Shown here piece after piece: positions 9,901 to 36,189 of a DNA stretch of 64,000 nt. Location: the NCBI RefSeq assembly GCF_032118995.1, contig NC_092665.1:8055501-8119500 (forward strand), written 5' to 3'. The position numbers and the translations under genes were made by a program. Source of the stretch: Asterias amurensis (taxonomy: Eukaryota > Echinodermata > Asteroidea > Forcipulatida > Asteriidae). The notes beneath the pieces are model-generated. The model was not told the origin of the DNA. It searched no databases and saw nothing but the letters and a program-made list of their open reading frames with translations. The stretch's first letter is position 1. Every line of letters begins with the position of its first letter.

Positions 9901-10822
9901 TCAATCTCTCCCTATTGCTAGTTACCAAGTAAGGTTTTATGCTAATAGTTTGAGTAATTACCAATATTGTCCACTGCCTTTAAACAAATGGAGACGGAAC
10001 TACGACACCGTACCTCATAAATGGTGGTATTGTGAATATCCAGAGTCAGTCGATACTCGAACAAAAATGACATGAAAGCTTCTTTATTTTGAAATTGTTG
10101 GTAAGCTACCGTCCCCGCAACAGGCCAGTCATCGAGATTCTCCAATACTTCATCTACCAATGGATACGTATTAATCAGAAAGATCTTCCGCTGGGGACCA
10201 GTCGTCCTTTGCTGCATCAATGAACTAATGTATAAAGCAGTCATGTCACGTTCAAGCTGAAGACTATGAACAAGGGTACCAACCTAGAATACAATTGGAC
10301 ATGTACAAAATAAATGTTATAACAAACGCCTTTTGGCAAGCTTCTACTTTTAATTTTAAAACACCTAAAACAAATTAATAAATAATAGGATGTGCCGGTA
10401 CATGAGATGGAGCCGTACACGTCAGAGCTTAGACGTGATGAACAAACGTGTATAAAATGTTACAATGGTTCTGTTATAATAACAATGATGAGTCTTACCT
10501 GCCGACTGAATTGTACATTGCGTCTTATTTCAATAGCGTCAATACTTTTGGTAAGTGTTGCAATCAGATCAGATATAGCCAGTGTGGTCAAGACGACAAT
10601 TGGCATTAAGGTCAATGTCAACATCTTGATCATCTGCTTCCTTTTGCCAACTGGTGTAAGTGGAGTTGCTGAACACAGACTGGTCTTTGTGTCTTGTATA
10701 GCCTCTCTGATAGACTCATCTACTTGACTCATTGATCCCAGGCTAGATGCATTGCTGTTAGTGCGACTGTGAGGATGAGCTCCAGTTGCCGGATCAGTTT
10801 GAAGACCCTTCTCAGAAGCCAT
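3939..10822 (-). CDS. NIT-domain receptor-type guanylyl cyclase (NIT-GC), 10 exons
   Basis: Predicted to make cGMP from GTP at a membrane. Coding exons in transcript order: 10822-10499, 10283-10014, 9508-9284, 9134-8898, 8059-7952, 6389-6041, 5450-5313, 4798-4700, 4504-4413, 4082-3939. All have GT-AG borders and compatible phases, giving 661 aa. Order: Ser/Thr-rich cytosolic N-terminus; membrane helix about 66-88; extracellular NIT domain about 100-365, opening with [17 protein letters not shown]; second helix about 369-388; signalling helix ending [14 protein letters not shown]; cyclase domain from about 445. Metal-binding Asp454 (FSDIVAFT) and Asp498 (IGDAYM) and guanine-selecting Glu494 and Cys566 are present. 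The usual transition-state Arg is Lys577. The start was chosen because ACAATGG is a good Kozak context and an in-frame stop lies at 10904-10906. NIT is a nitrate/nitrite-sensing domain of bacterial receptors; annelid NIT-GCs have been linked to nitric-oxide signalling. The ligand here is not known. Confidence 0.9.
5662..5955 (+). mobile_element. tRNA-derived SINE, copy 1 (3' shortened)
   Basis: A Leu/Ser-tRNA-like head (GTGTCGTGGCCGAACGGTCA, then TGCGTTCGAGTCG as B box) is followed by the family body with the word GGATGGGACGTAAAGCCGTT. It lies in the intron between cyclase exons 6 and 7. Other copies: 23094-23490 (-), 34658-35042 (+), 43785-44190 (-), 53366-53785 (+). Confidence 0.8.
6800..6842 (-). 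repeat. Short dispersed repeat shared with 36268-36300
   Basis: About 33 bp around GTTCGTTTAGCTTCCCTGGG match the opposite strand near 36268-36300, where the repeat precedes a (GAAT)-rich tail. It is probably the end of an old dispersed retroelement lying in a cyclase intron. Confidence 0.5.
7195..7752. mobile_element. Foldback element, family J, split by a nested MITE
   Basis: Arms rich in the word ACGTGAACG and its complement (GTTTAGCTG at left, CAGCTAAAC at right) surround an inserted family D MITE at 7269-7578. An uninterrupted relative lies at 12283-12503. It is non-coding and sits in the intron between cyclase exons 5 and 6. Confidence 0.65.
7269..7578. mobile_element. TTAA-flanked MITE, family D, copy 1
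   Basis: Internally deleted member of a long palindromic family with terminus TTAAAGGAACACGTTGCCTT. The loop region carries GGTCGGCCATTTATGGGAG. Other copies: 18229-18580, 25007-25396, 28073-28453 and 61490-61877. It is nested in family J. Confidence 0.8.
8141..8275. mobile_element. Small foldback MITE
   Basis: The left arm GGCCGTGCCCGAAACGGTGA is matched by the inverse of the right arm ending GTTTCGCACACGGC, with further pairing through GACTTTGGCTAC. It is non-coding and in a cyclase intron. Confidence 0.55.
8505..8745. repeat. Dispersed repeat K
   Basis: A block beginning TTTGAATCTGAGAAGC and ending TTAAAACAATCGA is related to 57340-57525, which has the same opening and the ending AAAACAATCAAATAG. 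I cannot assign it to a transposon class. Confidence 0.45.
9748..9983. mobile_element. TTAA-flanked MITE, family A (internally deleted)
   Basis: Terminus of the TTAA-AGGCAGTGGACACTATT type (here starting TTAATGAGACACTGGAC) at the left and its inverse at the right, with most of the central hairpin missing. It lies between cyclase exons 2 and 3. Confidence 0.8.
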
Positions 10823-10914
10823 TGTGAACTCCAAAGGGTTATCCAGATGAACTACAGCTAGCAAAACTCTATATGAAAGTAGTTGAACAAAATCATAGTC
10901 AAACTACGCAGCTA

Positions 10915-18580: not shown

Positions 18581-19930
18581 CGGATAAACTATGTGGTTTT
18601 CAAAGCTCATTATGTGTTCATAATGATACGATCATTTCAAAGAAATGTCATAGTTTGGTCAAGCGATTAAATGTTAGTTTGATTTTGATTGATACTTATT
18701 GCGTAAGTAGTGTGTGTATAGTTAGTGTTTGGGAAGTCTTTTATCATGCATGCATGAAGGCCTATATACCCGTAATATGGCAATAATATGAAAAAATGTA
18801 ATAAAATATTGCATAGAACGTTTGATTCGGCAAAACTTGTCTGCTGCCCCCCCCCCCCCCCCAAACCTCCTATTTGTTGTTAGGGCGTATTTTCATCCAA
18901 GCCTCTTATTCCAAATAATCAAAGAGTACAGCCAATCTGTCAACATTTGTTTAACGATCAAAATCATCCAAAGTACTGAACTAGAAACAACTTTATAATG
19001 ATATTCATTGCTGTTAATTTGAACATTATAAATGGAAGCAAGCCGGAATAAGCACGATCACAACAATCTTGAGTCAATAAATTTGCAACAGAGATAAAGA
19101 ATATTCGTTTTGGTTGTTGACCATTATACACTGATGTGTGTTAGCACTGTATTCAGTACTTTCCCGAGTTCTGTGAAAACATTGCTGACTGTATCCCAAA
19201 CTGGGATAGTGAGAACGGTTGCTGGGCGGCGGTGGGGCTGAAATTTGCCGGCATTTTCCCGGCAGTTTTTTTCCCGGGAAATGGCTCTGTAGTGTCAAAA
19301 AGGGCTTTAGCTTTCAATTGCATTGTACCGGTAAATGGAATAGAAATACCTTCATGGTTGTTGTTTAAAATGTACATGGGCCGCTGACTCGCGTGTTGCG
19401 GGTGCACCGCCCCAACCTATTGCTAATCAATGTTTTACTCTAGTCTGTCAATACAAATGTTGCGTTTAAATTCAGACGACAGGTGTTGCGTAATTATTTC
19501 TTCAGATGACGATTTGGACGGGCGGCGAAACCGTTCATAATACCATTGTCTTTATGATTTTAAATGTAGACCTTATAATTTCAATATTCAAATGCACAAC
19601 GATAAGTTCAGTCTTTTTATATGGGTCTTTATTTCTACTCCAAATTGATAACTGATTCAACTTAGCGTAATGGCCTAGTATACGTTTTTAGCCAAGCATG
19701 ATTTATGTTGGAAATACTTCAAAACCTCATTTCTGCTAAAAGAACGAATGTTATAAACTGACAAAACATACAACCGACACTTTCAAAAATCAAAGATTTT
19801 CATAGAGTATCTATCTGTGCCATTGCAGTCTTTTTTTACTTTTCTTGACAGCAACCGACACAATATACTGCAATCATGGTGGAAGTTGTTCTTTGGCGAA
19901 TCATAACCACAGCATAACCGTTGATTTAAA
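18581..19930. other. Upstream flank of the G alpha gene
   Basis: Holds a C-run at about 18846-18862 and a dispersed repeat at 19073-19180, which on the minus strand matches 25470-25580 (shared words CACAGAACTCGGGAAAG and AACACACATCAGTGTA). No gene was recognised. The G alpha promoter may lie here or upstream. Confidence 0.4.
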
Positions 19931-20318
19931 CGGTGTTAACAGGAGGTCATCTGCAAACGGTGTTAACAGGAGGTCATCTGCAAACGGTGTTAACAGGAGG
20001 TCATCTGCAAACGGTGTTAACAGGAGGTCATCTGCAAACGGTGTTAACAGGAGGTCATCTGCAAACGGTGTTAACAGGAGGTCATCTGCAGACGGTGTTA
20101 ATAGGAGGTCATCTGCAGACGGTGTTAACAGGAGGTCATCTGCAAACGGTGTTAATAGGAGGTCATCTGCAAACGGTGTTAACAGGAGGTCATCTGCAAA
20201 CGGTGTTAACAGGAGGTCATCTGCAAACGGTGTTAACAGGAGGTCACCTGCAAACGGTGTTAACAGGAGGTCTTTTGCAAACGGTGTTAACAGGATCAGG
20301 AGGTCATCTGCAAACGGT
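19931..20318. repeat. 27-bp minisatellite upstream of the G alpha start
   Basis: About 14 nearly identical units of GGTGTTAACAGGAGGTCATC plus CTGCAAAC-type sequence. Because 27 is a multiple of three it stays open in several frames (for example NGVNRRSSA repeats), but none joins the G alpha reading frame: that frame has a stop at 20344-20346. It ends about 85 bp before the G alpha ATG, so it lies in the 5' UTR or proximal promoter. Confidence 0.9.
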
Positions 20319-20403
20319 GTACTGCAGACTTCGAGCTGTATTATAAACGGCACTGTTACAAGCCGACGACAAGTTGGCTTATGATTCTATAGGATTATGC
20401 AAT

Positions 20404-23400
20404 ATGGCCAACGAAGAAATGGTCACACAGAAACAGCGTAGTAAGCAGATTGACAGATATCTCAAGGATGAACGGAAAAAATACAAAGACTACGTCAAGA
20501 AAACCATGAGACTGCTCCTTGTCGGTAAGTTTCGGTTTTCTAATAATTTGTACACTTTCAGAAACGAAGACTCGTTTCTCACAGCCTTGCTACCATGGGC
20601 AGCGCGCCGTATCGATACACCTCTCGTCACTAACCCCTGGGAGGGATGTACTGGAAAATACCGCTGATTGGCTCAGAAAATAGACCCTTCCCATGAAATA
20701 TGTTAATTGCACTATTTTACAGAAATAGTTCCCTGTCCGATGAAAATGTAACGTTCTCTATAGTGAAAATGACATACGTTTGTGCTATTTATGAGACGTC
20801 ATCAGAATAGGTGAGTCTGACTGGTTTGGGAACCAAACTACAGACAGAGAAGAGTATGTGGACCACTTTGGTAGACTGGAAATACATGTAGTTTGGGAAC
20901 CGAATGGTAGCTTGTGAGAATGATAGTCTGGGAACCAAATGGTAGACTGGAAGAATGTAAAGTCTAGGAACCAAATGGTAGACTGGAAGAATGTAGTCTG
21001 GGAACCAAATGGTAGTCTGGAAGAATGTAGTCTGGGAACCAAATGGTAGACTGGAAGAATGTAGTCTAGGAACCAAATGGTAGACTCGAATAATGTATAG
21101 TCTGGGAACCAAATGGTAGACTCGAATAATGTATAGTCTGGGAACCAAATGGCAGATTGGAAGAATGTAGTCTAGGAACCAAATGGTAGATTGGAAGAAT
21201 GTAGTCTGTGAACCAAATGGTAGACATGGAAGAATGTATAGTCTGGGAACCAAATGGAAGATTGGAAGAATGTAGTCTGGGAACCAAATGGTAGTCTGGA
21301 AGAATGTAGTCTGGGAACCAAATGGTAGACTGGAAGAATGTAAAGTATGGGAACCAAACGGTAGACTGGAAGAATGTAGTCTGTGAACCAAATGGCAGAC
21401 TGGAAGAATGTGTAGTCTGGGAACCAAATGGTAGACTCGAATAATGTATAGTCTGGGAACCAAATGGCAGATTGGAAGAATGTAGTCTAGGAACCAAATG
21501 GTAGATTGGAAGAATGTAGTCTGTGAACCAAATGGTAGACATGGAAGAATGTATAGTCTGGGAACCAAATGGTAGATTGGAAGAATGTAGTCTAGGAACC
21601 AAATGGCAGATTGGAAGAATGTAGTCTGGGAACCAAATGGTAGACTGGAAGAATGTATAGTCTGGGAACCAAATGGTAGATTGGAAGAATGTAGTCTAGG
21701 AACCAAATGGTAGATTGGAAGAATGTAGTCTGTGAACCAAATGGTAGACATGGAAGAATGTATAGTCTGGGAACCAAATGGTAGATTGGAAGAATGTAGT
21801 CTAGGAACCAAATGGCAGATTGGAAGAATGTAGTCTGGGAACCAAATGGTAGACTGGAAGAATGTATAGTCTGGGAACCAAATGGTAGATTGGAAGAATG
21901 TAGTCTAGGAACCAAATGGTAGATTGGAAGAATGTAGTCTGTGAACCAAATGGTAGACTGGAAGAATGTATAGTCTGGGAACCAATGGTAGATTGGAAGA
22001 ATGTAGTCTAGGAACCAAATGGTAGATTGAAAGAATGTAGTCTGTGAACCAAATGGTAGACAGGAAGAATGTGTAGTCTGGGAACCAATGGTAGACTGGA
22101 AGAATGTATAGTCTGGGAACCAAATGGTAGACTGGAAGAATGTAAAGTCTGTAAACCAAATGGTAGACTGGAAGAATGTAAAGTCTAGGAACCAAATGGT
22201 AGACTGGAAGAATGTAGTCTGGGAACCAAATGGTAGACTGGAAGAATGTAAAGTCTAGGAACCAAATGGTAGACTGGAAGAATGTAGTCTGGGAACCAAA
22301 TGGTAGACAGGAAGAATGTAGTCTGGGAACCAAATGGTAGACTGGAAGAATGTAAAGTATGGGAACCAAATGGTAGACTGGAAGAATGTGTAGTCTGGGA
22401 ACCAAATGGTAGACTCGAAGAATGTATAGTCTGGGAACCAAATGGTAGATTGGAAGAATGTAGTCTAGGAACCAAGTTAATGGTAGATTGGAAGAATGTA
22501 GTCTGTGAACCAAATGGTAGACATGGAAGAATGTATAGTCTGGGAACCAAATGGTAGATTGGAAGAATGTAGTCTAGGAACCAAATGGTAGATTGGAAGA
22601 ATGTATAGTCTGGGAACCAAATGGTAGACTGGAAGAATGTATAGTCTGGGAACCAAATGGTAGATTGGAAGAATGTATTCTAGGAACCAAATGGTAGATT
22701 GGAAGAATGTAGTCTGTGAACCAAATGGTAGACTGGAAGAATGTATAGTCTGGGAACCAATGGTAGATTGGAAGAATGTAGTCTAGGAACCAAATGGTAG
22801 ATTGAAAGAATGTAGTCTGTGAACCAAATGGTAGACAGGAAGAATGTATAGTCTGGGAACCAATGGTAGACTGGAAGAATGTATAGTCTGGGAACCAAAT
22901 GGTAGACTGGAAGAATGTAAAGTCTGTGAACAAAATGGTAGATTGGAAGAATGTAGTCTAGGAACCAAATGGTAGATTGGAAGAATGTAAAGTCTGTGAA
23001 CCAAATGGTAGACAGGAAAAATGTAAAGTCTGGGAACCATAATGGTAGATTGGAAGAATGTAGTCTAGGAACCATACTGGTAGACTGGGAACCATAATAA
23101 TATATAGCGCACGTATCTACCAAGCAAGGTACTGAAGGCGCTGAGCATATACAAACTTTCAGAAAGATAGGTTATTGCAGTGATGGATTCTGAGACCCAA
23201 TTATGTAGCACTTATAAGGGTTTACAAGGTGCTACGGTGCATGAAGCAGTCACAACCAGGAACACCAGGCGAACCCCTTCTCTTTTCGATAAGTGCACTG
23301 GGTTGTTTTACATGCGTTTACACAAACATGGGACCAACGGCTTTACGTCCCATCCGAAGGACGAAGCAATGGTAAAGTGTCTTGCTTTAAGGACACAAGT

Positions 23401-26400
23401 GTCACGGCTGGGGATTCGAACCCACACTCTGCTGATCAGAAACACCAGAGTTTGAATTCGGTGCGATTAACCGCTCGGCCACGACACTTCCACATAATGG
23501 TAGACTGGAAGAATGTAGTCTGGGTGGGAACAAATGGATGAAGTACAGGAAAGGGTATGCGAACCGTAGGGGGAAAATGAAAGAAGTTGGTCTAGAAACT
23601 AAACGAGAAGAAGTGGCACGGCTTATATATTCTGATTTTATGAACATCTTTGGTTGCATTGTTGGAATAAGACCACAACTTGGCTGATTTTGGTGTTGGA
23701 CGGGACGCCACATGATCAATTTATGTTTATTTCACACAAATTACCAAACAAATAAGGAAAAATCAAAACCGCTGGGAAAAGGTTCATATTTCTAATTAAC
23801 CCTTAGTTTAAAAAAAATGAGTTCCAATATCCTGAATTGATTAGCCACTGATGACAAATATCCTTTTTTATTTCCATGTAGGTGCTGGGGAATCCGGGAA
23901 AAGTACAATAGTGAAGCAGATGAAGATATTACACCAAGGGGGATATAGTGATGTGTGAGTACATGAGTTTTGTCACAAATTGTTACAAAGGAATTCCCTA
24001 TGTATATCTGCAACGACCTAAACATTTTCAAACTCAGTTCTACTGCATGGGTTTTGGTTTGAATTACTCTTCACCTTCGTCGGGCGGCCTTTTACTTTCG
24101 TACTACACTACAGCGCAGAGGAAGAGTCCAAAGAGTCACTATAATGAGAACACCAAACCTATCAACTAGGTCTACCTGTCTCATTTGCTACAAGATTTGT
24201 GTTTTGTTTGTCCTGACCCTACCTCCTCATTGAAGTATTGGACCGCATTTAAATCCCTCTCAAACGAAAAATTGACTAAACACCATATAACTTTATTTAC
24301 ATATTGTGCAGAGAAAGACAGGAGTTTGTTCACATTATTCGTGGTAATCTTCGCGATGCAATATTGGTACGTATATATCATTTACACCCTTTGATTTATG
24401 TCGGTCTTGCCACCGAAGTTCACCCAACTATAGCTTTCTTGATAGACGCTTTATCCAACATTCATAATAACTGATGAGACAGTTTCGCTATTCTTATTGG
24501 TGAAGAGCGCGTCGCGTGGGCATGTATAAACCTTTGATAATGACCAGTACAAAGTGTTGAAACATCATGGGCGTGACACGCGAGCTTGCACCTGCGCATA
24601 TAAGACAGTTTATTCATTCCTATTGGTCGAGAGCAACGGTTGAAACAGTTGTGCCACATCACGCGATACGCGCGACGCGCACAGCATCTCGTTATAAGGA
24701 GTTGTTTACCCGAGGGCCTTACCGTTTCATAGCTGGAGGGATGTTGTGTTGAAAGAAATCATTGAACAATTATAATTGTTGAATTTATTTTACTTTTTGA
24801 CCAAAAAGTGTTGATGTTCTTTGACCGAAAATGTACTTATGAATGGGAATCAAAGTGTGTTGAATCGGTTTTCAACTAGTGGTTTAAACCCGCCGAGGCC
24901 TGGTTCTTGATAATTTACATCGACTTCGTCTCGGTACTATCAAGTCCAGGCCTCGGCGCGGGTTTAAACCACTAGTTGAAAACCTCTTTACCACACATTG
25001 ATTCCCTTAAAGGAACACGTTGCCTTGGATCGGACGAGTTGGTCAAAACAAAAGCGTTTGTAACCGTTTTTTATAAAATGCATATGGTTGGAAAGATGTT
25101 TTAAAAGTAGAATACAATGATCCACACAAGTTTGCCTCGAAATTGCGTGGTTTTCCTTCTACTGTGCGAACTAACATGGTCGGCCATTTATGGGAGTCAA
25201 AATTTTGACCCCCATAAATGGCCGACGTGTTAGTCGACGAGGTAAAAGGAAAACCACGCAATTTCGAGGCATGTTTGTGTGGATCATTGTATTCTACTTT
25301 TACAACATCTTTCTACCCATATGCATTTTATAAAAAACGGTTACAAACGCTTTTCAAAGACCAACTCGACCGATCCAAGGCAACGTGTTCCTTTAATAAA
25401 GTAACCACATGTTTTGTTATAAAAAAATAAATACACAACAAGAACACCCGAGCAATATGCCTGTTATTTTGTTCACAGAACTCGGGAAAGATGAGTATAC
25501 AGTGCTTAGTAACACACATCAGTGTACATGGGTAAAACCAAAATGAAGATTCTTTATCCCCGATGCAAATTTAACATAAATTATATGAATGTGTTTTCCT
25601 AACTTTGCCGCAGACGATTACTGGAAGCATGCATACATTACAACCAGCCATTGACTTAGCTGATGTCAGTTTACAACCTTGTCTTGACTACATGCTTGAC
25701 AACGCATCGTGTCCAGACTTCCAATACAACAAGGTAATAATGCTCTCATTGTATACGTGCATCTATCCAGGTAAAATGTCTTCAATACAACAAGGTAATA
25801 ATGCTCTCACTGTATACGTGCATCAATCCAGGTAAAATGTCTTCAATTTCCAAACTAATTGGCTCTGCATTCACTCCCTGTAGGAGTTTTACGACAAGGC
25901 TAAGTTATTATGGGAGGATGATGGTGTTCGTGAATGTTACACCAGAGCCAATGAATATCAACTGATTGACAGTGCAGAATAGTAAGTATATTTTGGCTGT
26001 AGTCGCGCTTGTGTCCCGTGAATGTCTCATTTTCATTGGTGTACCAGAAGGGTGGCACCCCTGCTCAGAACCCTTGCAATCCCCTTGCCACGATATGAGA
26101 TAAATACATTAAATAACCCATCCAAAACAAGGTCTTTGTTGATCATTTATATGCCATAGTAGACCGTGGGATGACGCTCCAAATTCTGCTTTCGAGTAGT
26201 CTAACCCGCACAGTACTTTAGTCTTGAATAGACTTAAAATTCGTAGAAAATTCAACTTACCACCCCAAAAAGTCGTAAAGTCCAATACGTGCACATTACA
26301 TAATCATTTCATTACAAAGTATGAGCGCAATTGTGAAAGTCGTGTCATGAGTTCTTAAACGAGCGTTTCAAACCGGTAGGGTCGTGGCCGTGTGTGGGCC

Positions 26401-29400
26401 TTTATCGCACGGCAACGATCCTGCAAGGTTTGAAACGGACATTTAAGAACGAGTCACTATACTCTTTATTCCCATTCATAAATGCCTTTTTGGTTAAAAG
26501 GTGTAATCAAGTAAGAAACTCTGTAAAACTTATCCGTTCCCAATGTGCTTGAGCTCTGTACGTCCGTCTGTTGAAGTGTTATGACTGAGACGACAGTTTC
26601 CGATCCGTTCGTGCGCGTATAGTCTTGGTGCAAGACGTTCTCGTTTCCTTTCACACACAGCGCGGCCAACTCACCGACAGCGCCCGCATCGCCCGTAACA
26701 AGAAACGTTTTGCACCAAGACTAGCGCGTAGTATCCGACTGCAACCGGTTATAAACAGAGCTCCCTGGTCATTATCAACCGTTTAAACACCCCCACGTGA
26801 CGCGCTCTCCACCTATAGGAATAGCGAAACTGTCTGAGGTGTTTATGAATTGTCCATTAAACGAGGCAAAGTCCAACTAAATGAAACATTCTATTATTTC
26901 AAATCCCACATTTCAAATATTTAAACAAAATACTTTACCCATTGAACTAATGCGAAATCTTCATTAGGCTATTTGTTTTAACTAAAATCCCACTACATTT
27001 GTCATTTGATTGGAGGAAACAAATTGTGGAATCATTAAATTGAACAACGATGCTGATGAAGCTAATGTCAATTAAAATGCATTGTGGTCTAGGCCCTAAA
27101 GAAACCTGTAACAGGGATAGGCTTATGAGACAAACAACCACAATGATGTATGGTGGCCCTGAAGGGACATATCGCAATCTTTGCAAATATTGCGACATTG
27201 CAGATAATATTTGCGATGCAATGTTCCTTGAGGGCCACCATAGTGAAGAGTATGCTACTAAAATATTTGCTACTAAAATGTAATTTCCTGAATGCCGTTT
27301 GACGTTTTGCCGTCTAGAATCTAATCATCCAATTAAATGAGCGGGATCTACTGGGATGGGTCTTTAATTCCCTTTATCTGTGTTTAAGTTCATGTTTGTT
27401 TATTTTGTTATCAAGTTTTCTAAGCAGAATTGATGACATTCGGGAACCAGACTTTCTTCCTTCTAACCAGGTGAGACTGAGTCGGTTTCTATATATGCAT
27501 TTATATATTGGTCCTTAGCATTCAACAATGAAAGCAAGGTCAATCATAGCTCTGGCGGCCTTACTTACGTATTGTACTACAGTGACTGTGTCTGTGTACA
27601 GAGGAAGAGTCCTATTATAGGGCTAGGTCAATCAAAGCCAACAACTGCCTTTGGTAATTACTGACTATAAGAAATACACTGCAGGTAAATGCGAACAGAT
27701 TTTTTTCTGTCAATGCACGACATTTTTGTTTACAATTTTTCTTCTTTCATCACAAATATTAATAACCAAATATTCCATTTTCAATGTAAAACTTGGTTTG
27801 TTCTAAGTTATGGAAAAAATGTAAACAAAGTCACATCAAAAAGTCTTGCTATAATGTAATGGTATTTTGTGAGGTTGGTTTCATTGTGTATAAGTATTTG
27901 ACTTAAAATAAGAGGATTTGAATTGGGGTATTCTTCGGATAAATATTTATGTTTCAAACTCAAAAATATCCATTTGTCCTGCAGGACATTCTTAGGTCTC
28001 GAAAGATTACGACTGGCATACTGGAAACCTGCTTTGACGTTAAAAACATCGATTTTCAGTAAGTTGCCTTTCTTAAAGGAACACGTTGCCTTGGATCGGA
28101 CGAGTTGGTCTATAAAAAAGCGTTTGTAACCGTTTGTTAAAAAATGCAAATGGTTGGAAAGATAATTTATAAGTAGAATACAATGATCCACACAAGTTTG
28201 CCTCGAAATTGCGTGGTTTTCCTTTTACTGTGCGAACTAACACGGTCGGCCATTTATGGGAGTCAAAAATTTGACTCCCATAAATGGCCGACCGTATTAG
28301 TCGACGAGGTTTAAGGAAAACCGTGCAATTTCGAGGCATGTTTGTGTGGATCATTGTATTCTACTTTTACAGCATCTTTCTACCCATATGCATATTATAA
28401 CAAACGCTTTTCAAAGACCAACTCGACCCATCCAAGGCAACGTGTTCCTTTAATGTACATCCTTTGTATGCGTATAATGAACTGTATGAAGGACACAAGA
28501 CGACAGCGAGAAGACGGTCAGAGAGAGCTGTATGAAGGACACCAGACGACAGCGAGAAGACGGCCAGAGAGAGGAAATAAACTGACAAAAATAACAAAAT
28601 GTTATTGTCTATTTCGTTTGCGATTGAACTATGTCCAAACAACAATGGTGCGTTGCATTTGTTTTCAGGATGTTGGATGTCGGTGGGCAGCGAGATGAAA
28701 GGAAGAAATGGATTCAATGTTTTTCAGGTACGTGTAGAGAGCACATAGACAGAGTGTTATAGTGTGTTGAAGTGTCACTGACAAATATGCTTTATTAGAA
28801 TAGTTACATATTATTATCGGTATGCAGCCCGAGTACATTGGTATACAAATTTTAAGAAATGTAGTGTCACCGGTTTTTTTTTCTTTTTTTCGGCGCATTA
28901 CGTATTTATGAGAAGAAAACAAATCCAGAAAAAAATTACAAAATTCACCCGTGGAGTTTTAACTGAATACTTTAATTACTTGTTGAGAAAATAACAAAAA
29001 AAACCTGAACTGAATATGTACGAAGAACGTCGATGCCACCCTGGTTTATCTATAGCTAACAGCGGGTACTCGACCACTATCTGGGCCTAGTCATGGCAGC
29101 GTTCAATTCAAACGGAATACAAAGCCAATTTCCAAAGGTCACCTACTCACCTACAACTGGCGATGTTTAGAGGTTTCAATTAGTTAACATACTTTTATTG
29201 ATTTCTAATCAAAGAGGGCACTTCAGACGAAATGATTTCGCATTATGCTACTACCATGAGGCTTTTGGATCAAATTTAAAACCAAACCATTTCTTTGTAA
29301 TACCAAAGTTTGACCTTTCCTTGGGAAAGTACATCTTTGTTAGTTTTGTTGTTGTTGTTGTTGTTGTTGTTTCAAATAAAAATTTGCTAGTTGGGTAATC

Positions 29401-32400
29401 ACCCATCTGTTTTATGTGATTGGGTTGCATTGATGAATGGTGGTTGCACAAAGTGATTGTTATGTGTTTGATTGGTACTACGTAGATGTAACAGCACTCA
29501 TCTTCGTAGTTGCATGCAGTAGTTTTGACCTGGTGTTACGTGAAGACCAGAACAAAAACAGATTACAGGAGTCGTTGGACCTTCATGAAAGACTATGGAA
29601 AAACAGGTAATGATTTCTTTACGCCTTCATTGCAAATAAAGTTGACCTACCAACTTCTCGCTGAACGAGAGATGCAGTCCAGGAAAGACCCTTTAAATAT
29701 AGGCACACCTACAACCGTTTCGTCCTTGCCATAGAGCTATATCTCTATGGTCGTTACACGTCTTGTATTGCTTTATCGTGTCACATGAAAAAGGCTATCA
29801 TACACATAGACCTGCGTAAAATTATACTCATTATTATAATAACTTGTGACCCGTCGAATAGTTATTGTTATCAACATATTTTGGACTTATACCACCATAA
29901 GCTCTTCTCATCAGTTGGTGCCTTTTTTCGCGTTTCTATTTGTGAATAAATTTCTTTCTAGGTCATGGACCCAAAACGATACTTTTCATGAAACTGTTTT
30001 TAAAATGTGATCGTTTCTGTCTAGATTTCTAAGGGGTACGTCTGTCATCATGTTTCTGAACAAACAAGACATTTTAGCAGAGAAGGTGTCGAGACGCCAG
30101 TCATCGTTAGTGGATTACTTCCCAGACTATGAATCTTACACACCACCAGGTAATAATCTATAGTTCAATATTGGATTTACTCAATCATATACATAATTTA
30201 ATGATATGATGATTTTATTATTTATCAAGTAAATAGTTTAATAATTTAATCATTGTGAAATCGTTCAATCACCAAATTATAGTCATTTATTTAAAAACTT
30301 AACTCACTGTGAAATGTCGTCAAGGTCAACAGTTATTTCTTGTTCAGTGTAAGTCTTAAAATAATCTTCTGAAATGTTAAAATGTATTTTAATCTTACAT
30401 AGAAATAAACAAGTCCAATGGTGTTTCATATGATGATTTATCAATCATATTTGCAGCACTGTGGTTGCCGTATTCAACTAGTTAATTGTGTGCAATGTGA
30501 CTAACATCGGGTGAGTCAAAACACAAAATCATTGGATGGGAGCTATTATTTTAAGAACAAGACACATATTGATCATAAGAGTCAATTTCTTAGTAGGTCA
30601 TAGATTTGTTTATAATAATGAAAGGATGGAGAGTATTGATAAAGGCGTTCAAGAGATATTGTTTCAATCGGGTCACATAAAAACATTTCTGTCCATATAA
30701 ATTTGAAAACATGAGCTCGGAGATTCGTTAATCTTAAAGGAGTCCAGATAGATGGAAGAGCTGGACTTCAGTGGATTTTATTTTACATAGTCCTAATAAC
30801 ATGGTCCAACAAAACCAAACGACTCTTTTCAGGGCCAACACTAACTAAAAGGCTCTGTAAAGAGCCAACGAAACCCAACGGCCATTTACAGGCCCACTTA
30901 AAAACAAAAGAGAAAAGAAAGACATTGTCACATGCCCTCTTTAAATGACACACATTATCCAAATTTAGTTGGACAGAAATGTCTGTATGCCATCCGATTG
31001 AAGTAAGCGTATCTCTGGAACGCCTTTATCAATCACCCCCATTCCTCTAACATGGTAAATGTAAATCCATGACCTACTTAGAAATGGACATTATTTGTTC
31101 AAGATTGTTCTTGTTTTTAAAATAATAGCTCCCATCCAATGATTGCGTTATTTATGACTCACCCGGTATAACAATAAGTGTTTTATTCGCCTATAATAGA
31201 GACAATCGAAGCTCCTGAGGGATTGTGTTGTTTTTCAACAAAACAGAAAAGAGCAGCTCAACGCAGACGAGAATCAAGTAAGAATATTAAAAAATGACTT
31301 AATCTTCAGCAACATAGTCACTCACATCCAAGTAAGAATATCAACCAAACAAAATGGACTTAAATCTCCAGCATAATAGTTACTCACATCCAAGTAAGAA
31401 TATCAACCAAACAAAATGGACTTAAATCTCCAGCATAATAGTTACTCACATCCAAGTAAGAATATTAACCAAACAAAATGGACTTAAATCTCCAGCATAA
31501 TAGTTACTCACATCCAAGTAAGAATATCAACCAAACAAAATGGACTTAAATCTCCAGCATAATAGTTACTCACATCCAAGTAAGAATATTAACCAAACAA
31601 AATGGACTTAAATCTCCAGCATAATAGTTACTCACATCCAAGTAAGAATATTAACCAAACAAAATGGACTTAAATCTCCAGCATAATAGTTACTCGCATT
31701 AACATAGAAATCAAAACATTGGTATACTCAGAAACCAAATCATTCCTTCTGTTTGGCGTTTTTTAATATATATTTTATACAAGCCTGGGGAACACAGTCC
31801 AAGTTTGGAGTTTAGAAGTGTAGAAGTTTGGAATGTCACAACACAGACGGTACGGCCCCCTATGCATACCGTCTGTCTTATTGAAATTGTCTGTCTTTTA
31901 TAGGTTGTTGTATCTTAGTTTTAGTTTAAGTTACTGTAGAATCTTTTATTTCCACTTTAACATGGTATATATTGTGTTTGGCCTACAGCATTCCCAGCTT
32001 TGAACATCGTGGAAAGTAGAGAGTTCTTCAAGGCCAAGAGTTTTATCAAATCTAAATTTCAGGTAAAAATACATTTCTGGTCTAAAATTACGAATGAGGA
32101 TCTTGGGAGTGAAAGCAATAGCAATAACATGACTTTTTTATAATAAAAGTATTGTTTTGTTAATTGAATTCAGTGAAAAAAATTAAAAAAATTAAAAGTA
32201 CAGTCCAAAGGTAAATATTATATTTATGAAGAACAAACAGGTCGTCGACAAGAATTGGTAACTATAGTTTATGCATTTTGCAATATTTTACCATCTCTTT
32301 CAAGTGTTCAAAAATGTCAGATGAAAATGAACCAAGACACAGGGGTTTATGGTTTTGAAAGATAGACATCATCTGATCCGGTTTATTAAAAACAGTCTTT

Positions 32401-34041
32401 TTCCATCCGTAATAGCATTTTTTCCATTCATAAACACATACGCGTAAAACAGTATTAACAACAGACACAATACTCTGAAACAAAATGCTAAATTCAGTTC
32501 ATTTCTGTGCAGAACGAATAGCCAAACAACAGAAGATTTATTTTGATCAAAATTACGTATACACAGTTTATCTATACCAAGAATTCATTTGTATAGACAT
32601 AATTACTATTGATGATAAATTGTCGAGATATAAATTGTTTGTTATTGTTTATTATTCCTCAGAGTATATGCATTACGGTAAACAAAGAGACAAGTTACAA
32701 GAAATGTTGCTATCCTCATTACACATGCGCAGTGGATCAGGAGAATATACAGCGTGTGTTTCAGGATTGCACAGACATCATACAAAGAGAACATCTTAAA
32801 AAGTTCAATTTAATGTAAACTATACATCAGCATTACTCGCAATTTGCTTGACTTGACTGAAGTTACTCAACTTAAAAGAATAAAAACAATCATCGCAGGA
32901 CACTTACACCAAAAACAAGCAAGCTTGGAATTATGTCAGTTAATTGACAGATCCTTAGCTTTCGCTCTCATTGTAACTAAGAGCTATGTTTTCAAATACT
33001 TACAGCTGACGCTGTTTTTTTTTTTTTGGGGGGGGGGGGGGACACAGCCACTTTTAAAGACAGTGGACACTATTGGTTATACAAAAATTGTCAAGGACAA
33101 GTCTTCTCACTTGGTGTATCTCAACATATGCATACAATAACAATCCTGTGAAAATTTGAGCTCAATTGGTCATCGAAGTTGCGAGATAGTAATGCAAGAA
33201 AAAACACCCTTTTCACACGAAGTTGTGTGCTTCCAGATGCTTGATTTCGAGACCTCAAATTTCTAAACTTGAGGTCTCGAAATCAAATTCGTGGAAAATT
33301 ACTTCTTTCTCGGAAACTACGAGGGAGCCGTTTCTCACAATGTTTTATACTATCAACCTCTCCCAATTACTCGTTACCAAGTAAGGTTTTATGCTAATAA
33401 TTATTAACCAATAGTAATTAACCAATAGTGTCCACTGCCTTTATGTAAAAAAAAACCCATATCCATCTTATTTTCATTATTGCCGGGGTAGCCTTTTAAA
33501 GCATCTGTCATGTTTTGGTTATTTGGTTCATGCCTTTGCATGTTGTTTTATTCAGTATTAATGTATCAGCAATCAGCATTCTTTTTATGGATCAGATCGT
33601 GACAACAGTACTACACAGGTGAATTAATCACGGTACATCTTAGCCTTTAGTCAAGGCACACGCGGCACCCCATCAGATGTCGAAATAATACTTCGCCGCT
33701 CGTGTTGGTCTTTTTTCGTGCGTGATGTTTTGGGATGCCGCCGCTGCGTGCGCCTTGAACAAAGGCTATAATAATTATGTACATTTTTGTTATAACCAAT
33801 GGAAAGTTCTAATGTATAAAGTAATTTGTATTATATTATTTATTCGGTAATCATGTACATTTCCATCTTTTTCTTAATTCAGGAGCTTTGTATTTGTGAC
33901 ACATTTGAACATCGCTTCGTCAAACACTGCTATTTCCATTTCACCATTGCCGTCAATTCAGAAAACATCAGCAAAGTATTTGAGTCGTGTAAAGACATGA
34001 TCCAGCGATTACACTTGGAGAATTCTGGAATAATCCGCTAG
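20404..34041 (+). CDS. Divergent Gs-class heterotrimeric G-protein alpha subunit
   Basis: GTPase switch that couples receptors to effectors; the Gs class stimulates adenylyl cyclase. Common coding exons: 20404-20524, 23882-23954, 24312-24366, 25614-25733, 25884-25981, 27416-27470, 27985-28058, 28669-28727, 29486-29606, 30025-30149, 31989-32062 (325 aa); then either 32663-32818 or 33883-34041, giving 376 or 377 aa. Phases agree at every junction. P-loop GAGESGKST (41-49), switch I with catalytic Arg180 and Mg-binding Thr183 (RSRKITTG), switch II DVGGQ with Gln206, NKQD (271-274) and TCAV or TIAV (346-349) are all present. Gs resemblance is clear in [13 protein letters not shown] and TDIIQREHL. 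Start: ATG with A at -3 and G at +4. Oddly, the N-terminus ([10 protein letters not shown]) has no Gly2 and no Cys for lipid attachment. It is more diverged than typical GNAS, so I give no symbol. Confidence 0.92.
20815..23092. repeat. 2.3-kb minisatellite in G alpha intron 1
   Basis: About 65 units of 34-37 bp built on AGTCTGGGAACCAAATGGTA plus a GACTGGAAGAATGT-type second half. Unit length varies because TAGTC and TATAGTC forms alternate. A SINE has inserted near the right end (23094-23490), with a few repeat units beyond it to about 23540. The long open frames across it are products of the repeat. Confidence 0.9.
23094..23490 (-). mobile_element. tRNA-derived SINE, copy 2, nested in minisatellite
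   Basis: Nearly full copy in reverse orientation: tail word TATATAGCGCACGTATCTAC at the left, tRNA-like head (CGCTCGGCCACGACACTT on the plus strand) at the right. The minisatellite word CATAATGGTAGA continues after it, so the SINE is younger than the array. Confidence 0.85.
24470..24725. mobile_element. Foldback element, family H/I (partial)
   Basis: Begins near GAGACAGTTTCGCTATTC, the inverse of the right end of the element at 26340-26850 (AATAGCGAAACTGTC), with GAGCGCGTCGCGTGGG following. G alpha intron 3. Confidence 0.5.
24842..25006. mobile_element. Foldback element, family G
   Basis: Long inverted arms, GGTTTTCAACTAGTGGTTTA at left and its inverse at right, closing on GACTTCGTCTCGG. 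Single-arm fragments lie at 42405-42499 and 46256-46353. It directly abuts the TTAA-flanked MITE at 25007. Confidence 0.75.
25007..25396. mobile_element. TTAA-flanked MITE, family D, copy 3
   Basis: Full palindrome with TTAA borders. The two arms meet at TCAAAATTTTGA, giving a hairpin of about 190 bp per arm. G alpha intron 3. Confidence 0.9.
25470..25580 (+). repeat. Dispersed repeat L just upstream of G alpha exon 4
   Basis: Shares CACAGAACTCGGGAAAG, AACACACATCAGTGTA and GATTCTTTATC with the minus strand of 19073-19180. It ends about 35 bp before the exon 4 acceptor. Confidence 0.6.
25720..25841 (+). repeat. 61-bp tandem duplication spanning a splice donor
   Basis: The last bases of G alpha exon 4 (AATACAACAAG) and the following intron start are duplicated once at a distance of 61 bp. 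The second copy repeats the donor AAG/GTAATAATG at 25794/25795. Use of the second donor would add 61 nt and shift the frame. Confidence 0.85.
26340..26850. mobile_element. Foldback element, family H/I
   Basis: A strong hairpin (GAGTTCTTAAACGAGCGTTT paired with its inverse at 26432-26456) is followed by a second inverted pair around CTTGGTGCAAGACGTT and its inverse at 26708-26726. It ends near AATAGCGAAACTGTC. The copy at 58305-60165 is interrupted by another transposon. G alpha intron 5. Confidence 0.6.
27146..27244. mobile_element. Miniature relative of the 770-bp foldback element
   Basis: Ends TATGGTGGCCCTGAAGGGAC and the inverse GGGCCACCATA match the termini of the element at 11153-11922, but the middle is only a short palindrome around TTTGCAAATATTGCGACATT. 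G alpha intron 5. Confidence 0.75.
28073..28453. mobile_element. TTAA-flanked MITE, family D, copy 4
   Basis: Full palindrome with TTAA borders, starting 15 bp after G alpha exon 7. Confidence 0.9.
29345..29371 (+). repeat. (TTG)n microsatellite
   Basis: About eight GTT/TTG triplets in G alpha intron 8. Confidence 0.85.
30505..31170. mobile_element. Foldback element in G alpha intron 10
   Basis: The left end GGGTGAGTCAAAACACAAAA and the inner word TTGGATGGGAGCTATTATTT are matched in inverse by AATAGCTCCCATCCAATGAT and GACTCACCC at the right. More inner pairing follows (GATAAAGGCGTTC with GAACGCCTTTATC). It is non-coding. Confidence 0.75.
31268..31700 (+). repeat. 62-bp tandem repeat, about seven units
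   Basis: Units begin CATCCAAGTAAGAATAT and contain ATGGACTTAAATCTCCAGCA. Copies are nearly identical, so the array is young. G alpha intron 10. Confidence 0.9.
32663..32818 (+). CDS. G alpha alternative terminal exon A
   Basis: Phase-0 acceptor with a strong pyrimidine tract (TTTATTATTCCTCAG). Encodes 51 residues that include [19 protein letters not shown] and end HLKKFNLM, then TAA. The end resembles the canonical Gs tail HLRQYELL. A canonical AATAAA follows 61 nt after the stop. This end gives a 376-aa protein. Confidence 0.88.
32879..32884 (+). promoter_or_regulatory. Polyadenylation signal for G alpha exon A form
   Basis: AATAAA 61 nt past the exon A stop codon and about 1 kb before exon B, as expected if exon A ends its own transcript. 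Confidence 0.6.
33054..33443. mobile_element. TTAA-flanked MITE, family A, full length
   Basis: Lies between the two alternative G alpha terminal exons. Inverted GACAGTGGACACTATTGG-type ends; central hairpin of CCTCAAATT and its inverse. A T-run/G-run junction directly precedes it (33015-33041). Confidence 0.85.
33883..34041 (+). CDS. G alpha alternative terminal exon B
   Basis: Also phase 0, with a strong acceptor (CATCTTTTTCTTAATTCAG). Encodes 52 residues aligning with exon A throughout ([20 protein letters not shown] against [20 protein letters not shown]) but ends HLENSGIIR, one residue longer and unlike the Gs tail. The reading frame is intact from acceptor to TAG. A variant signal ATTAAA lies at 34400-34405. 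The extreme C-terminus of G alpha is the main receptor-selectivity element, so the two forms should couple differently (inference). Confidence 0.82.
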   Translation, partial: ELCICDTFEHRFVKHCYFHFTIAVNSENISKVFESCKDMIQRLHLENSGIIR

Positions 34042-34657
34042 CCACTCCCAGCAAACATGTACCATCAGTATCATACCCAACGTTCCCATCTTTCAGTGAC
34101 ATCACGCTTCTTTATACATCCACACCGTGACTTGACTTATCCGAGAGCGAACCGTCTAGAACGACACACCTCGAACTTGCAATGCTGTCTTGATGCTCTA
34201 CACATTTATTATTGGGTTAAAATCAAATCATTTGTAAATAAGTATTTAAGCGATAATATTTTCAAACAACTGAAATTTGTTTTCGTTTTACGTGTAAATA
34301 GTGTCAAGAGTGGGACACACGACCGCCCATCATCCCACACTCATGACTTTAACGCCCATTTAGACCATTATTCGACCGCTTTTCAGCATGCTTTCTCAAA
34401 TTAAATATCATATTACCTCTGCTTTGGTGCTCGTAGCCGCCACTGTAGCATTGCAGCATCAGAATGTTATTCGACAATTAGTCACCAAAGAATGTATAAT
34501 AATATGGGACATTTCAACTTGAAAAACACCGTTTGATAAGTCACGTTGGGGAACCAAGCTCTCTGTTTTCTAGGCATTATAAAACAGAACCCGGTAAATA
34601 CAAATGGAAAGCTCGGAACGCAACGGTACCGGTTTAGAAAACTGGATCACTTTGTGG
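34042..34657. other. Downstream flank of G alpha
   Basis: Probably the 3' UTR of the exon B form, followed by unique sequence. No further gene recognised. Confidence 0.4.
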
Positions 34658-35042
34658 AAATGTCGTGGCCGAGCTGTAAAGAGCACCGAATTCAAACTTG
34701 GTGTTTCTGATCAGCAGAGTGTGGGTTCGAATCCCAAGCCACGACACTTGTGTGTCCTTTTTAAGCAAGACACTTAACCATTGCTTCGTCCTTCGGATGG
34801 GACGTAAAGCCGTTGGTCCCATGTGTTGTGTAACGCATGTAAAATAGCCTAGCTATTGCACTTATCAAAAAGAGACAGGGTTCGCCCCGGTGTTCCTGTT
34901 GGCTGCTAATAATGCGCCGTAGCACCTTGTTAAACCATTGTCTCTCATAATTTAAATCTTTCAATGCCTTCTCTTTCTAAATGTAAGCGCATTGAATAAC
35001 TTGTTGGTAAAACGTGCGCTTTATAAGACTTTGATACTATTA
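34658..35042 (+). mobile_element. tRNA-derived SINE, copy 3
   Basis: Head GTCGTGGCCGAGCTGTAAAG with B box GTGGGTTCGAATCCC; body with GGATGGGACGTAAAGCCGTT; tail GCGCTTTATAAGACTTTGAT. Confidence 0.85.
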
Positions 35043-35942
35043 GTAATTGTTGCTTTTAATCATTGCAGTTTTGCATTACATTTTCTGAATCGCAAGACTG
35101 CTTACAATTACCGTTAAAACTCTAGGAATGAGTGAGTACTGAAGAATTAAACGCTCTATATAGGCCTATAAAAATGATCATAGTATATGAGTGAGATTGA
35201 ATAAAAAACAGACTCGAACTAATATAATCAGTTTAATACCCTCCATTGAAACAGTTTGTGACGGATGTTTTAAACATTGTCCTTCCTAATTAACTAAAAT
35301 CAAAATATAGTGTATGTTCAGACGTTTCTATATGAATGTTTCGTCCCACGTGCAACTCAATTTTGCTGTAAAAAATTTTCAAGGCTGTATATATACGCTT
35401 CCCAAAAACATGAAATAAGGGAGTGTGACTCGTCTATTGCAAAGCCTAAAGCACTGCATCACGCTCATAATGCTATAGTAGGCTCCTATGCATTGTCATT
35501 GTTATTATGCGCATTAGTGTTTGATGACATTCTAATGACATAAAAGGTCATAATTTTTTATATGTGTGTAATAAAACGACAGTTGTGTCATTGCTGTATT
35601 CCTCTCTCATCTTGTTTCTTATTTCCGGTTTCTCGTTTGGGTGAAGTACACTGTATTATAAGCGGACGGAGCTCAAACCTCAAACCAAAGTCGTGTTTCG
35701 AAATGACTTTTGAAAGAAAACTCGGCGTTTCACAAAATACATAGACTTGATCCAAGTCGAACTTTCGTCGAGTCCTTCGTCGCGTCGAATTACTCCACTG
35801 AAAAACTGCATATCTTGGAGCAAGTTCGAGTGTGCACAAAACTAAAGGCTGACCATTTTGACTCGAACCCAGGCTGGTCGACCATTGGTTGACTACTGTG
35901 GTCGACCATTTGGAACCAGCCTCGAGCCCATGGTTTCTTCAC
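35043..35942. other. Intergenic, no gene recognised
   Basis: AT-rich sequence with no convincing open frame, RNA gene or transposon structure. Confidence 0.4.
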
Positions 35943-36189
35943 TGGGCCCAATTTCATAGCTGAGCTGCTAAGCACAGAAATTTGCTTAGCATGAAATTTT
36001 TCCTTGATAAAATTGGGATTACCAACCAAATTTCCACGTGATTTTTAGGATAAGCAAACAACAGCTGAGAACCAGCAACAAGCAATATGCAACAAATGGA
36101 AATTTGGTTGGTAACCCTGTTTTTATCAAGGAAGAAATTTCATGCTAAGCAAATTTTTGTGCTTAGCAGCTCTATGAAATTGGGCCCAA
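35943..36189. mobile_element. MITE with TGGGCCCAATTTCATAG ends
   Basis: Inverted ends TGGGCCCAATTTCATAGC and its inverse, with arms rich in GCTTAGCA. A further arm fragment follows to about 36265. Related fragments: 54655-54850, 56880-56985 and about 62165-62360. Confidence 0.75.

What the first reader, a model, noticed from the sequence alone, without database searches (positions are those of the whole stretch)
32663..34041. Two alternative last exons give a G alpha subunit two different C-termini
Exon A (32663-32818) and exon B (33883-34041) are homologous over their whole length. Both start after strong phase-0 acceptors, both are open to a stop, and both encode beta6-alpha5. Exon A ends FNLM, close to the Gs tail; exon B ends SGIIR and is one residue longer. 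Exon A has its own AATAAA. The alpha5 tail decides which receptors a G protein meets, so one gene could switch receptor partners by terminal-exon choice. I know of no described Gs gene with this arrangement, but I cannot search.
Basis: partly seen in the sequence, partly recalled or inferred. Interest (0 to 1): 0.85.

Follow-up and report, generated by a model that had tools for sequence, protein, structure and literature searches.

The report
G protein gene with two tails
A second Gs-type G protein gene in an echinoderm carries two quite different last exons, so one gene could make two versions that listen to different receptors; the same kind of arrangement is already described in amphioxus Gs, vertebrate Go and insect Gq, but the two tails here are further apart than the amphioxus ones.

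Summary
The two exons are real and correctly placed. They are competing last exons of an unbroken 12-coding-exon Gs-class gene ('Gs2', 55% identical to the canonical Gs on another contig of the same genome; 11 of 11 intron phases shared). In the scans made, the canonical Gs and the other Gα genes showed one end each. Exon B is no old relic: between A and B synonymous sites are saturated (pS 0.94, pN 0.41), 0 of 2000 neutral runs matched it, and its acceptor is the best of 192 local AGs. Recent death is not excluded; no RNA and no second echinoderm could be examined. Two corrections: exon A's last four residues (FNLM) score higher against Gq's YNLV than against Gs's YELL; exon B keeps a Gs-like α5 shaft but its hook (SGII, then R) is nearest the small-residue-plus-Gly tails of the Gi/Go/Gv-type genes, a four-residue signal that weakens over eight. 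Bold reading: a natural Gs body with a Gi-like receptor hook.

The parts
20395..20524 (+). Gs2 coding exon 1 (first in-frame ATG of the aligned stretch at 20404; a further upstream exon is possible)
   Evidence: spliced alignment to human Gs
23882..23954 (+). Gs2 exon 2, P-loop GAGESGKST
24312..24366 (+). Gs2 exon 3
25614..25733 (+). Gs2 exon 4
25884..25981 (+). Gs2 exon 5
27416..27470 (+). Gs2 exon 6
27985..28058 (+). Gs2 exon 7, switch I ([10 protein letters not shown])
28669..28727 (+). Gs2 exon 8, DVGGQRDER
29486..29606 (+). Gs2 exon 9 (weak acceptor, score 0.2)
30025..30149 (+). Gs2 exon 10, NKQD
31989..32062 (+). Gs2 exon 11, common donor CAG|GTAAAA to both terminal exons
32663..32818 (+). 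terminal exon A, 51 aa, tail [11 protein letters not shown]
32879..32884 (+). AATAAA, starts 61 nt after exon A's stop codon
33055..33443 (+). 389-base repeat with 25-nt terminal inverted repeats (MITE-like) lying between exons A and B
33883..34041 (+). terminal exon B, 52 aa, tail [12 protein letters not shown]
34400..34405 (+). ATTAAA, candidate poly(A) signal for exon B (first AATAAA after it at 35200)

Best explanation
Gs2 is a second Gs-class Gα gene with no frame break in its model, whose last exon was duplicated in place long ago. Exon 11 (donor 32062) joins either exon A, with cleavage near AATAAA 32879, or skips it and joins exon B, which uses a poly(A) site further down. The two proteins share the GTPase and effector-facing body and differ in the α4-β6 loop, β6 and α5: isoform A keeps the Gs shaft with an F-N-L-M hook; isoform B keeps the Gs shaft but has an S-G-I-I-R hook, one residue longer, and Asn for the Asp of the TCAxD motif (a guanine-binding motif, recalled). 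Most likely this gives two receptor-coupling profiles, and perhaps a different nucleotide exchange rate in B, over one output. Shown: anatomy, homology, constraint on the pair over most of its history. Inferred: that both are spliced, the poly(A) choice, receptor selectivity, the shared output.
For: 12-exon model without frame breaks (one doubtful 51-nt exon dropped); 11 of 11 intron phases as in canonical Gs1, 10 of 11 positions exactly, intron 10 off by two codons in a poorly conserved stretch. Gs2 body, Gs1 and human Gs group at 100/100. tblastn of the window with a Golf P-loop piece and the Golf C-terminal half found no further Gα exon between or after A and B (it also missed the short exon 11), and genome scans with A and B gave only each other, Gs1 and weaker matches, so B has no other visible upstream partner. 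A-B differences by codon position 22/20/36; pS 0.935, pN 0.408; 0 of 2000 neutral runs stayed open with as high a similarity. B keeps 8 of 9 core columns invariant in the 8 other Gα tails and has the best local acceptor. β2AR did not release GDP from hook-truncated Gs (PMC7308389 passages); hook residues are named as selectivity determinants in simulations (PMC3691126 passages).
Against: No RNA evidence of either junction. No second echinoderm could be searched. A recent loss of B would leave it open: at 0.1 neutral substitutions per site 46% of simulated copies are still intact. B's D to N and C to I changes in TCAxD could mean a poor G protein. A's acceptor is only fifth of 192 locally. Over the last eight rather than four residues B's tail scores 12 against Gs1, close to Gi's 14 and above Go's 11. 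Which of A, B and Gs1 split first is unresolved (A+B 79/73; A with the Gs/Golf rows not rejected, p-AU 0.32).
Confidence: 0.66

Rival explanations
1. Exon B is a formerly used exon that died recently; only exon A is spliced today.
For: B is further from Gs1 than A is (20 v 27 of 48), breaks an otherwise invariant Asp, and its frame would often survive short neutral drift. A repeat lies just upstream of it.
Against: Open frame, stop, best local acceptor and 8 of 9 invariant residues kept after synonymous saturation.
Confidence: 0.18
2. Both isoforms are made, but B is not a receptor-selectivity switch: the altered β6-α5 makes a fast-exchanging or receptor-blind subunit that acts as a regulator (constitutive, dominant-negative or Gβγ sink).
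For: C to I and D to N in TCAxD (near the guanine ring, recalled), P to F before it, and an added C-terminal Arg. β2AR failed to release GDP from hook-truncated Gs (PMC7308389 passages).
Against: The α5 shaft stays Gs-like (IQR.HL in both), which a receptor-blind protein would not need.
Confidence: 0.25
3. Exon B belongs to a separate, partly lost tandem Gα gene rather than to Gs2.
For: Lineage-specific Gα duplications are common (PMC5896119 appendix A i).
Against: No other Gα exon near it in tblastn of the window (with the limits stated) or in the scans with both exons; it starts in the same phase as A and shares A's three-residue longer segment before CYxH relative to Gs1.
Confidence: 0.03

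Closest known systems
Amphioxus preGNAS exons 12.1/13.1 v 12.2/13.2 (Lokits et al. 2018, PMC5896119; appendix A read in full)
   Same: Gs-class gene, alternative C-terminal exons covering α5, second version one residue longer at the C-terminus.
   Different: There the last two exons are duplicated and 80-81% alike in protein; here only the last exon, 22 of 51 residues alike, in a divergent second Gs gene while the canonical Gs showed a single end.
Vertebrate GNAO exons 7.1-8.1 v 7.2-8.2 (PMC5896119, section on Gαo read)
   Same: Mutually exclusive final exons that alter the receptor-facing end of one Gα.
   Different: Go class, exon pair; no change of hook class is described in the section read.
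Insect Gαq alternative exons (PMC4553527 and PMC5765363, passages)
   Same: Homologous alternative exons including the 3' end; one isoform is head or eye specific.
   Different: Gq class, several exon pairs, tissue use shown experimentally.
Second preGNAS of echinoderms and hemichordates (PMC5896119 appendix A i); three unplaced Gα of crown-of-thorns starfish (PMC5442662, passages)
   Same: Probably the family to which Gs2 belongs (inference).
   Different: No second terminal exon is mentioned in the parts read; supplements were not available.

Membership tests
Gs-class Gα subunit | sequence grouping with Gs | tested here: met
   Gs2 body + Gs1 + human Gs 100/100 (10 rows, several of them partial models); PDB matches to a rough chain of Gs2 pieces led by miniGq, Golf and Gs
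Gs-class Gα subunit | Gs exon-intron structure | tested here: met
   11 of 11 phases; 10 of 11 positions exact, intron 10 off by two codons (125+74 v 131+68 nt)
Gs-class Gα subunit | G boxes (P-loop, DVGGQ, NKQD, TCA; names recalled) | tested here: met
   [21 protein letters not shown] in the body, TCAVD in A; TIAVN in B, so the last box is altered in isoform B
Gs-class Gα subunit | stimulates adenylyl cyclase | not testable with these tools
   needs assay
Gα genes with alternative terminal exons | two homologous, in-phase, open terminal exons in one gene | tested here: met
Gα genes with alternative terminal exons | both isoforms transcribed | not testable with these tools
   no RNA data held
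Gα genes with alternative terminal exons | both exons kept by selection | tested here: inconclusive
   long constraint shown (pS 0.935, pN 0.408, 0 of 2000 neutral runs); present-day constraint needs a second species
Gi/o-type receptor hook | small residue then Gly at the fourth and third from the aligned end | tested here: met
   exon B S-G; Gi C-G, Go C-G, C15 A-G, Gv-like A-G; last-four BLOSUM 7, 6, 8, 10 v Gs 0, Gq 3, G12 -4 and -6; over the last eight 14, 11, 17, 16 v Gs 12, Gq 9
Gi/o-type receptor hook | Cys four from the end and no extra residue | tested here: not met
   Ser, and a terminal Arg beyond the aligned end

The most novel reading that the evidence does not exclude
Terminal-exon choice turns one Gs-type protein into a natural chimera: isoform B carries a Gs body and α5 shaft with a Gi/Gv-like receptor hook, so receptors that normally work through inhibitory-class G proteins could raise cAMP in cells that splice exon B. 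Laboratories build such tail-swapped Gα by hand (recalled); this would be an evolved one.
Probability: 0.15. Interest if true: 0.8.

Novelty: new variant of a known kind. Interest (0 to 1): 0.52.

Why it matters
The α5 tail is a main reader of receptor identity. A pair of terminal exons that share a Gs body and shaft but differ at the hook is a ready-made test of how far the hook alone sets coupling. It would also be a further case of end-exon duplication among Gα genes (amphioxus Gs, vertebrate Go, insect Gq), which suggests a repeated evolutionary route to new receptor wiring without a new effector.

Tried and rejected
Separate tandem gene for exon B: disfavoured, no further Gα exon seen nearby (the tblastn queries covered the P-loop and the C-terminal half only, and missed the short exon 11, so a small stray exon could escape). 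Extra copy of the canonical Gs tail: rejected, A and B are each far from Gs1 at synonymous sites and share a longer segment before CYxH. Assembly duplicate: rejected, A and B differ at 78 of 153 bases. RNA family near the exons: none at gathering threshold in 20000-36000. A 51-nt exon at 24119-24169 that the aligner put between exons 2 and 3, and a 1+44-nt pair at the same place in Gs1, were dropped because exon 2 joins exon 3 in frame without them in both genes; a real cassette exon there is not excluded. Upstream exon ending ATGG before GTRAG, to give Met-Gly: none in 1-20392 (that consensus only). Terminal-exon tree to order the duplication: unresolved. Scans with exons A and B are weak probes for second ends in other Gα classes; the PF00503 scan listed one C-terminal match for each of seven other genes but did not list the ends of Gs1 or Gs2, so 'one end each' is what was seen, not proof. 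Paper searches without an echinoderm Gs terminal-exon report: 2 of 2 listed; 6 of 6; 4 of 4; 12 of 491; 6 of 6; most listed papers were not opened. A search on tail-swap chimeras (8 of 155 listed) was not used. Fold prediction was not run: a spliced protein is not a contiguous translation of the window, which the tool asks for.

Full report
Setting. The window is G000:C18:8055501-8119500 of a 491.5 Mb, 23-contig genome. Contig C23 is 16,427 bases (first 9,000 fetched) and holds a COX1 that reads sensibly with the echinoderm/flatworm code: AAA falls as Asn in STNHKDIG and AGA as Ser, where other codes give Lys and Arg (motif expectation recalled). The size fits a starfish (compare the starfish notes in the listing), but the species was not identified.

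The gene. After dropping one frame-neutral 51-nt exon judged spurious, it has 12 coding exons, from 20395 to 32062 plus a terminal exon. The first in-frame ATG in the aligned stretch, at 20404, would give MANEEMVTQ, without the Gly and Cys near the N-terminus that the canonical gene has (MGCFGN). No upstream donor of the form ATGG before GTRAG was found, so the true start is open. P-loop, DVGGQ, switch-I Arg and NKQD are present.

The canonical Gs. A second alignment found the canonical Gs ('Gs1') at C3:24943729-25009197; its last exon gives the same 48 residues as the human reference used. Gs1 and the window gene ('Gs2') are 55% identical (207 of 376 aligned). All 11 intron phases agree; ten positions agree exactly, while intron 10 is off by two codons in a poorly conserved stretch (125+74 v 131+68 nt). 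In a tree of 10 Gα rows, several of them partial models, Gs2, Gs1 and human Gs group at 100/100, with Gs1 and human Gs together at 97/96 and Gs2 outside. Lokits et al. report two preGNAS copies in both echinoderms they studied and in hemichordates (PMC5896119 appendix A i), so a second Gs gene is expected. The crown-of-thorns paper has three Gα it could not place (PMC5442662, passages); Gs2 may correspond to one of them, which is inference. The labels Gi, Go, Gq, G12 and Gv for the other genes rest on their tails and on recall.

The two terminal exons. Exon A (32663-32815 + TAA) and exon B (33883-34038 + TAG) each continue exon 11 in phase 0. They are alike at 22 of 51 residues and 75 of 153 bases. 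With a weight matrix from 33 acceptors of six other Gα genes, B's acceptor scores 11.1, the best of 192 AGs in 32100-36000, near the middle of the training set. A's scores 7.8, fifth of those 192, in the lower part of the training set but inside the 0.2-9.8 range of exons 2-11 of Gs2. Exon A has AATAAA at 32879; exon B's first candidates of the two main hexamers are ATTAAA 34400 and AATAAA 35200. A genome scan with exon B gave nine matches: itself, A, Gs1 and six weaker ones at other Gα loci. The scan with exon A gave eleven: itself, Gs1, B, six at other Gα loci, and two weak ones elsewhere (E 0.08, with stops inside, and E 5.3). No other Gα gene showed a second end in these scans or in the PF00503 scan, but these probes are weak for divergent ends, and one search did not list the Gs-type ends at all.

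Is exon B alive? Between A and B the differences by codon position are 22, 20 and 36 of 51 each; pS is 0.935 and pN 0.408, so synonymous sites are saturated while the protein is held back. In 2000 neutral runs from exon A to the same base identity, 9% stayed open, none exceeded 17 identical residues (observed 22), and none was both open and as similar by BLOSUM. The null has no indels and starts from A, so it is a rough bound. It shows long constraint, not constraint today: after 0.1 neutral substitutions per site 46% of simulated copies of B would still be open with their AG. B agrees at 18 of the 25 core residues where A equals Gs1 and at 8 of 9 core columns invariant in the other eight Gα tails of this genome; the exception is the Asp of TCAxD, Asn in B.

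What the tails look like. Among the eight other Gα tails, Gs1 is the nearest to both exons over the first 28 core residues (A 22 identical, B 17). Over the last four aligned residues exon A (FNLM) scores 14 against Gq's YNLV and 9 against Gs's YELL; over the last eight the two are level (25 and 24). Exon B (SGII, then R) scores 10, 8, 7 and 6 against the Gv-like, C15, Gi and Go tails, 3 against Gq, 0 against Gs and -4 and -6 against G12. Over the last eight it scores 16, 17, 14 and 11 against the first four and 12 against Gs, so the contrast weakens. Only the Gly is identical to Gi or Go within the last four, and aligning from the very end instead was not scored, so this is a lead. It falls where simulations in PMC3691126 place selectivity residues (Tyr, Glu, Leu in Gs; Asp, Cys, Gly, Phe in Gi; passages). 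PMC7308389 reports that β2AR did not release GDP from Gs lacking this hook, and that a hookless Gi3 responds to M1R while the intact one does not (passages).

How it probably works. Exon 11 is joined to A with early polyadenylation, or A is skipped and B used. Which factor decides is unknown; a single TGCATG at 33537 is no evidence. The result would be two Gs2 proteins with one effector face and two receptor faces, and perhaps a faster nucleotide exchange in B because of TIAVN. None of this is shown at the RNA or protein level here.

History. A and B share a segment before CYxH three residues longer than in Gs1, which favours duplication inside Gs2. The terminal-exon tree agrees only weakly (79/73), and a clade of A with the Gs/Golf rows is not rejected (p-AU 0.32). 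A 389-base repeat with 25-nt inverted ends lies between them; the 39 other copies scored are 87-89% identical to it.

Precedent and novelty. Alternative C-terminal exons are known for amphioxus Gs, with a one-residue extension in the second version (PMC5896119 appendix A ii), vertebrate Go and insect Gq (passages). The amphioxus versions are 80-81% alike; these are 43% alike, with one hook of Gs/Gq type and one nearer the Gi/Gv type. In searches I found no report of a second terminal exon in an echinoderm Gs; supplements could not be read and most listed papers were not opened. I rate it a new variant of a known kind.

Noticed in passing
window 33055-33443: MITE-like repeat with 25-nt terminal inverted repeats and an internal 22-nt palindrome; 39 further near-full-length copies scored at 87-89%, out of 7786 first-look candidates in the genome of which 40 were scored.
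   Followed up: partly
window 20395-20430: Gs2 exon 1 lacks an evident Met-Gly-Cys start; the codons before the ATG read ATA GGA TTA TGC AAT, so an upstream first exon giving Met-Gly is possible.
   Followed up: partly
window 25722-25847: A 61-bp unit repeated 2.1 times overlaps the end of exon 4, donor included.
   Followed up: no
L015 1205-8400 (C15:5.07 Mb): A divergent Gα ending SLRNAGMF that groups only loosely with Gi/Go and a Gv-like gene (85/87); may be an unclassified echinoderm Gα.
   Followed up: no
L009 and L010 (C11:18.23 and 11.70 Mb): Two G12-type genes, in line with the P. miniata duplication mentioned in PMC5896119 appendix A i.
   Followed up: no
window 20869-23088, 31291-31699, 19928-20295: Long tandem arrays (34 bp x63, 62 bp x6.6, 27 bp x13.6) in introns 1 and 10 and upstream of Gs2.
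   Followed up: no
window 5961-10864, minus strand: ORFs that look like a receptor-type guanylyl cyclase with its catalytic domain (by reading; not tested).
   Followed up: no
window 34640-34900: Stretch that reads like a tRNA-derived SINE, with GGTTCGAATCC, downstream of exon B (by eye; no Rfam match at gathering threshold).
   Followed up: no
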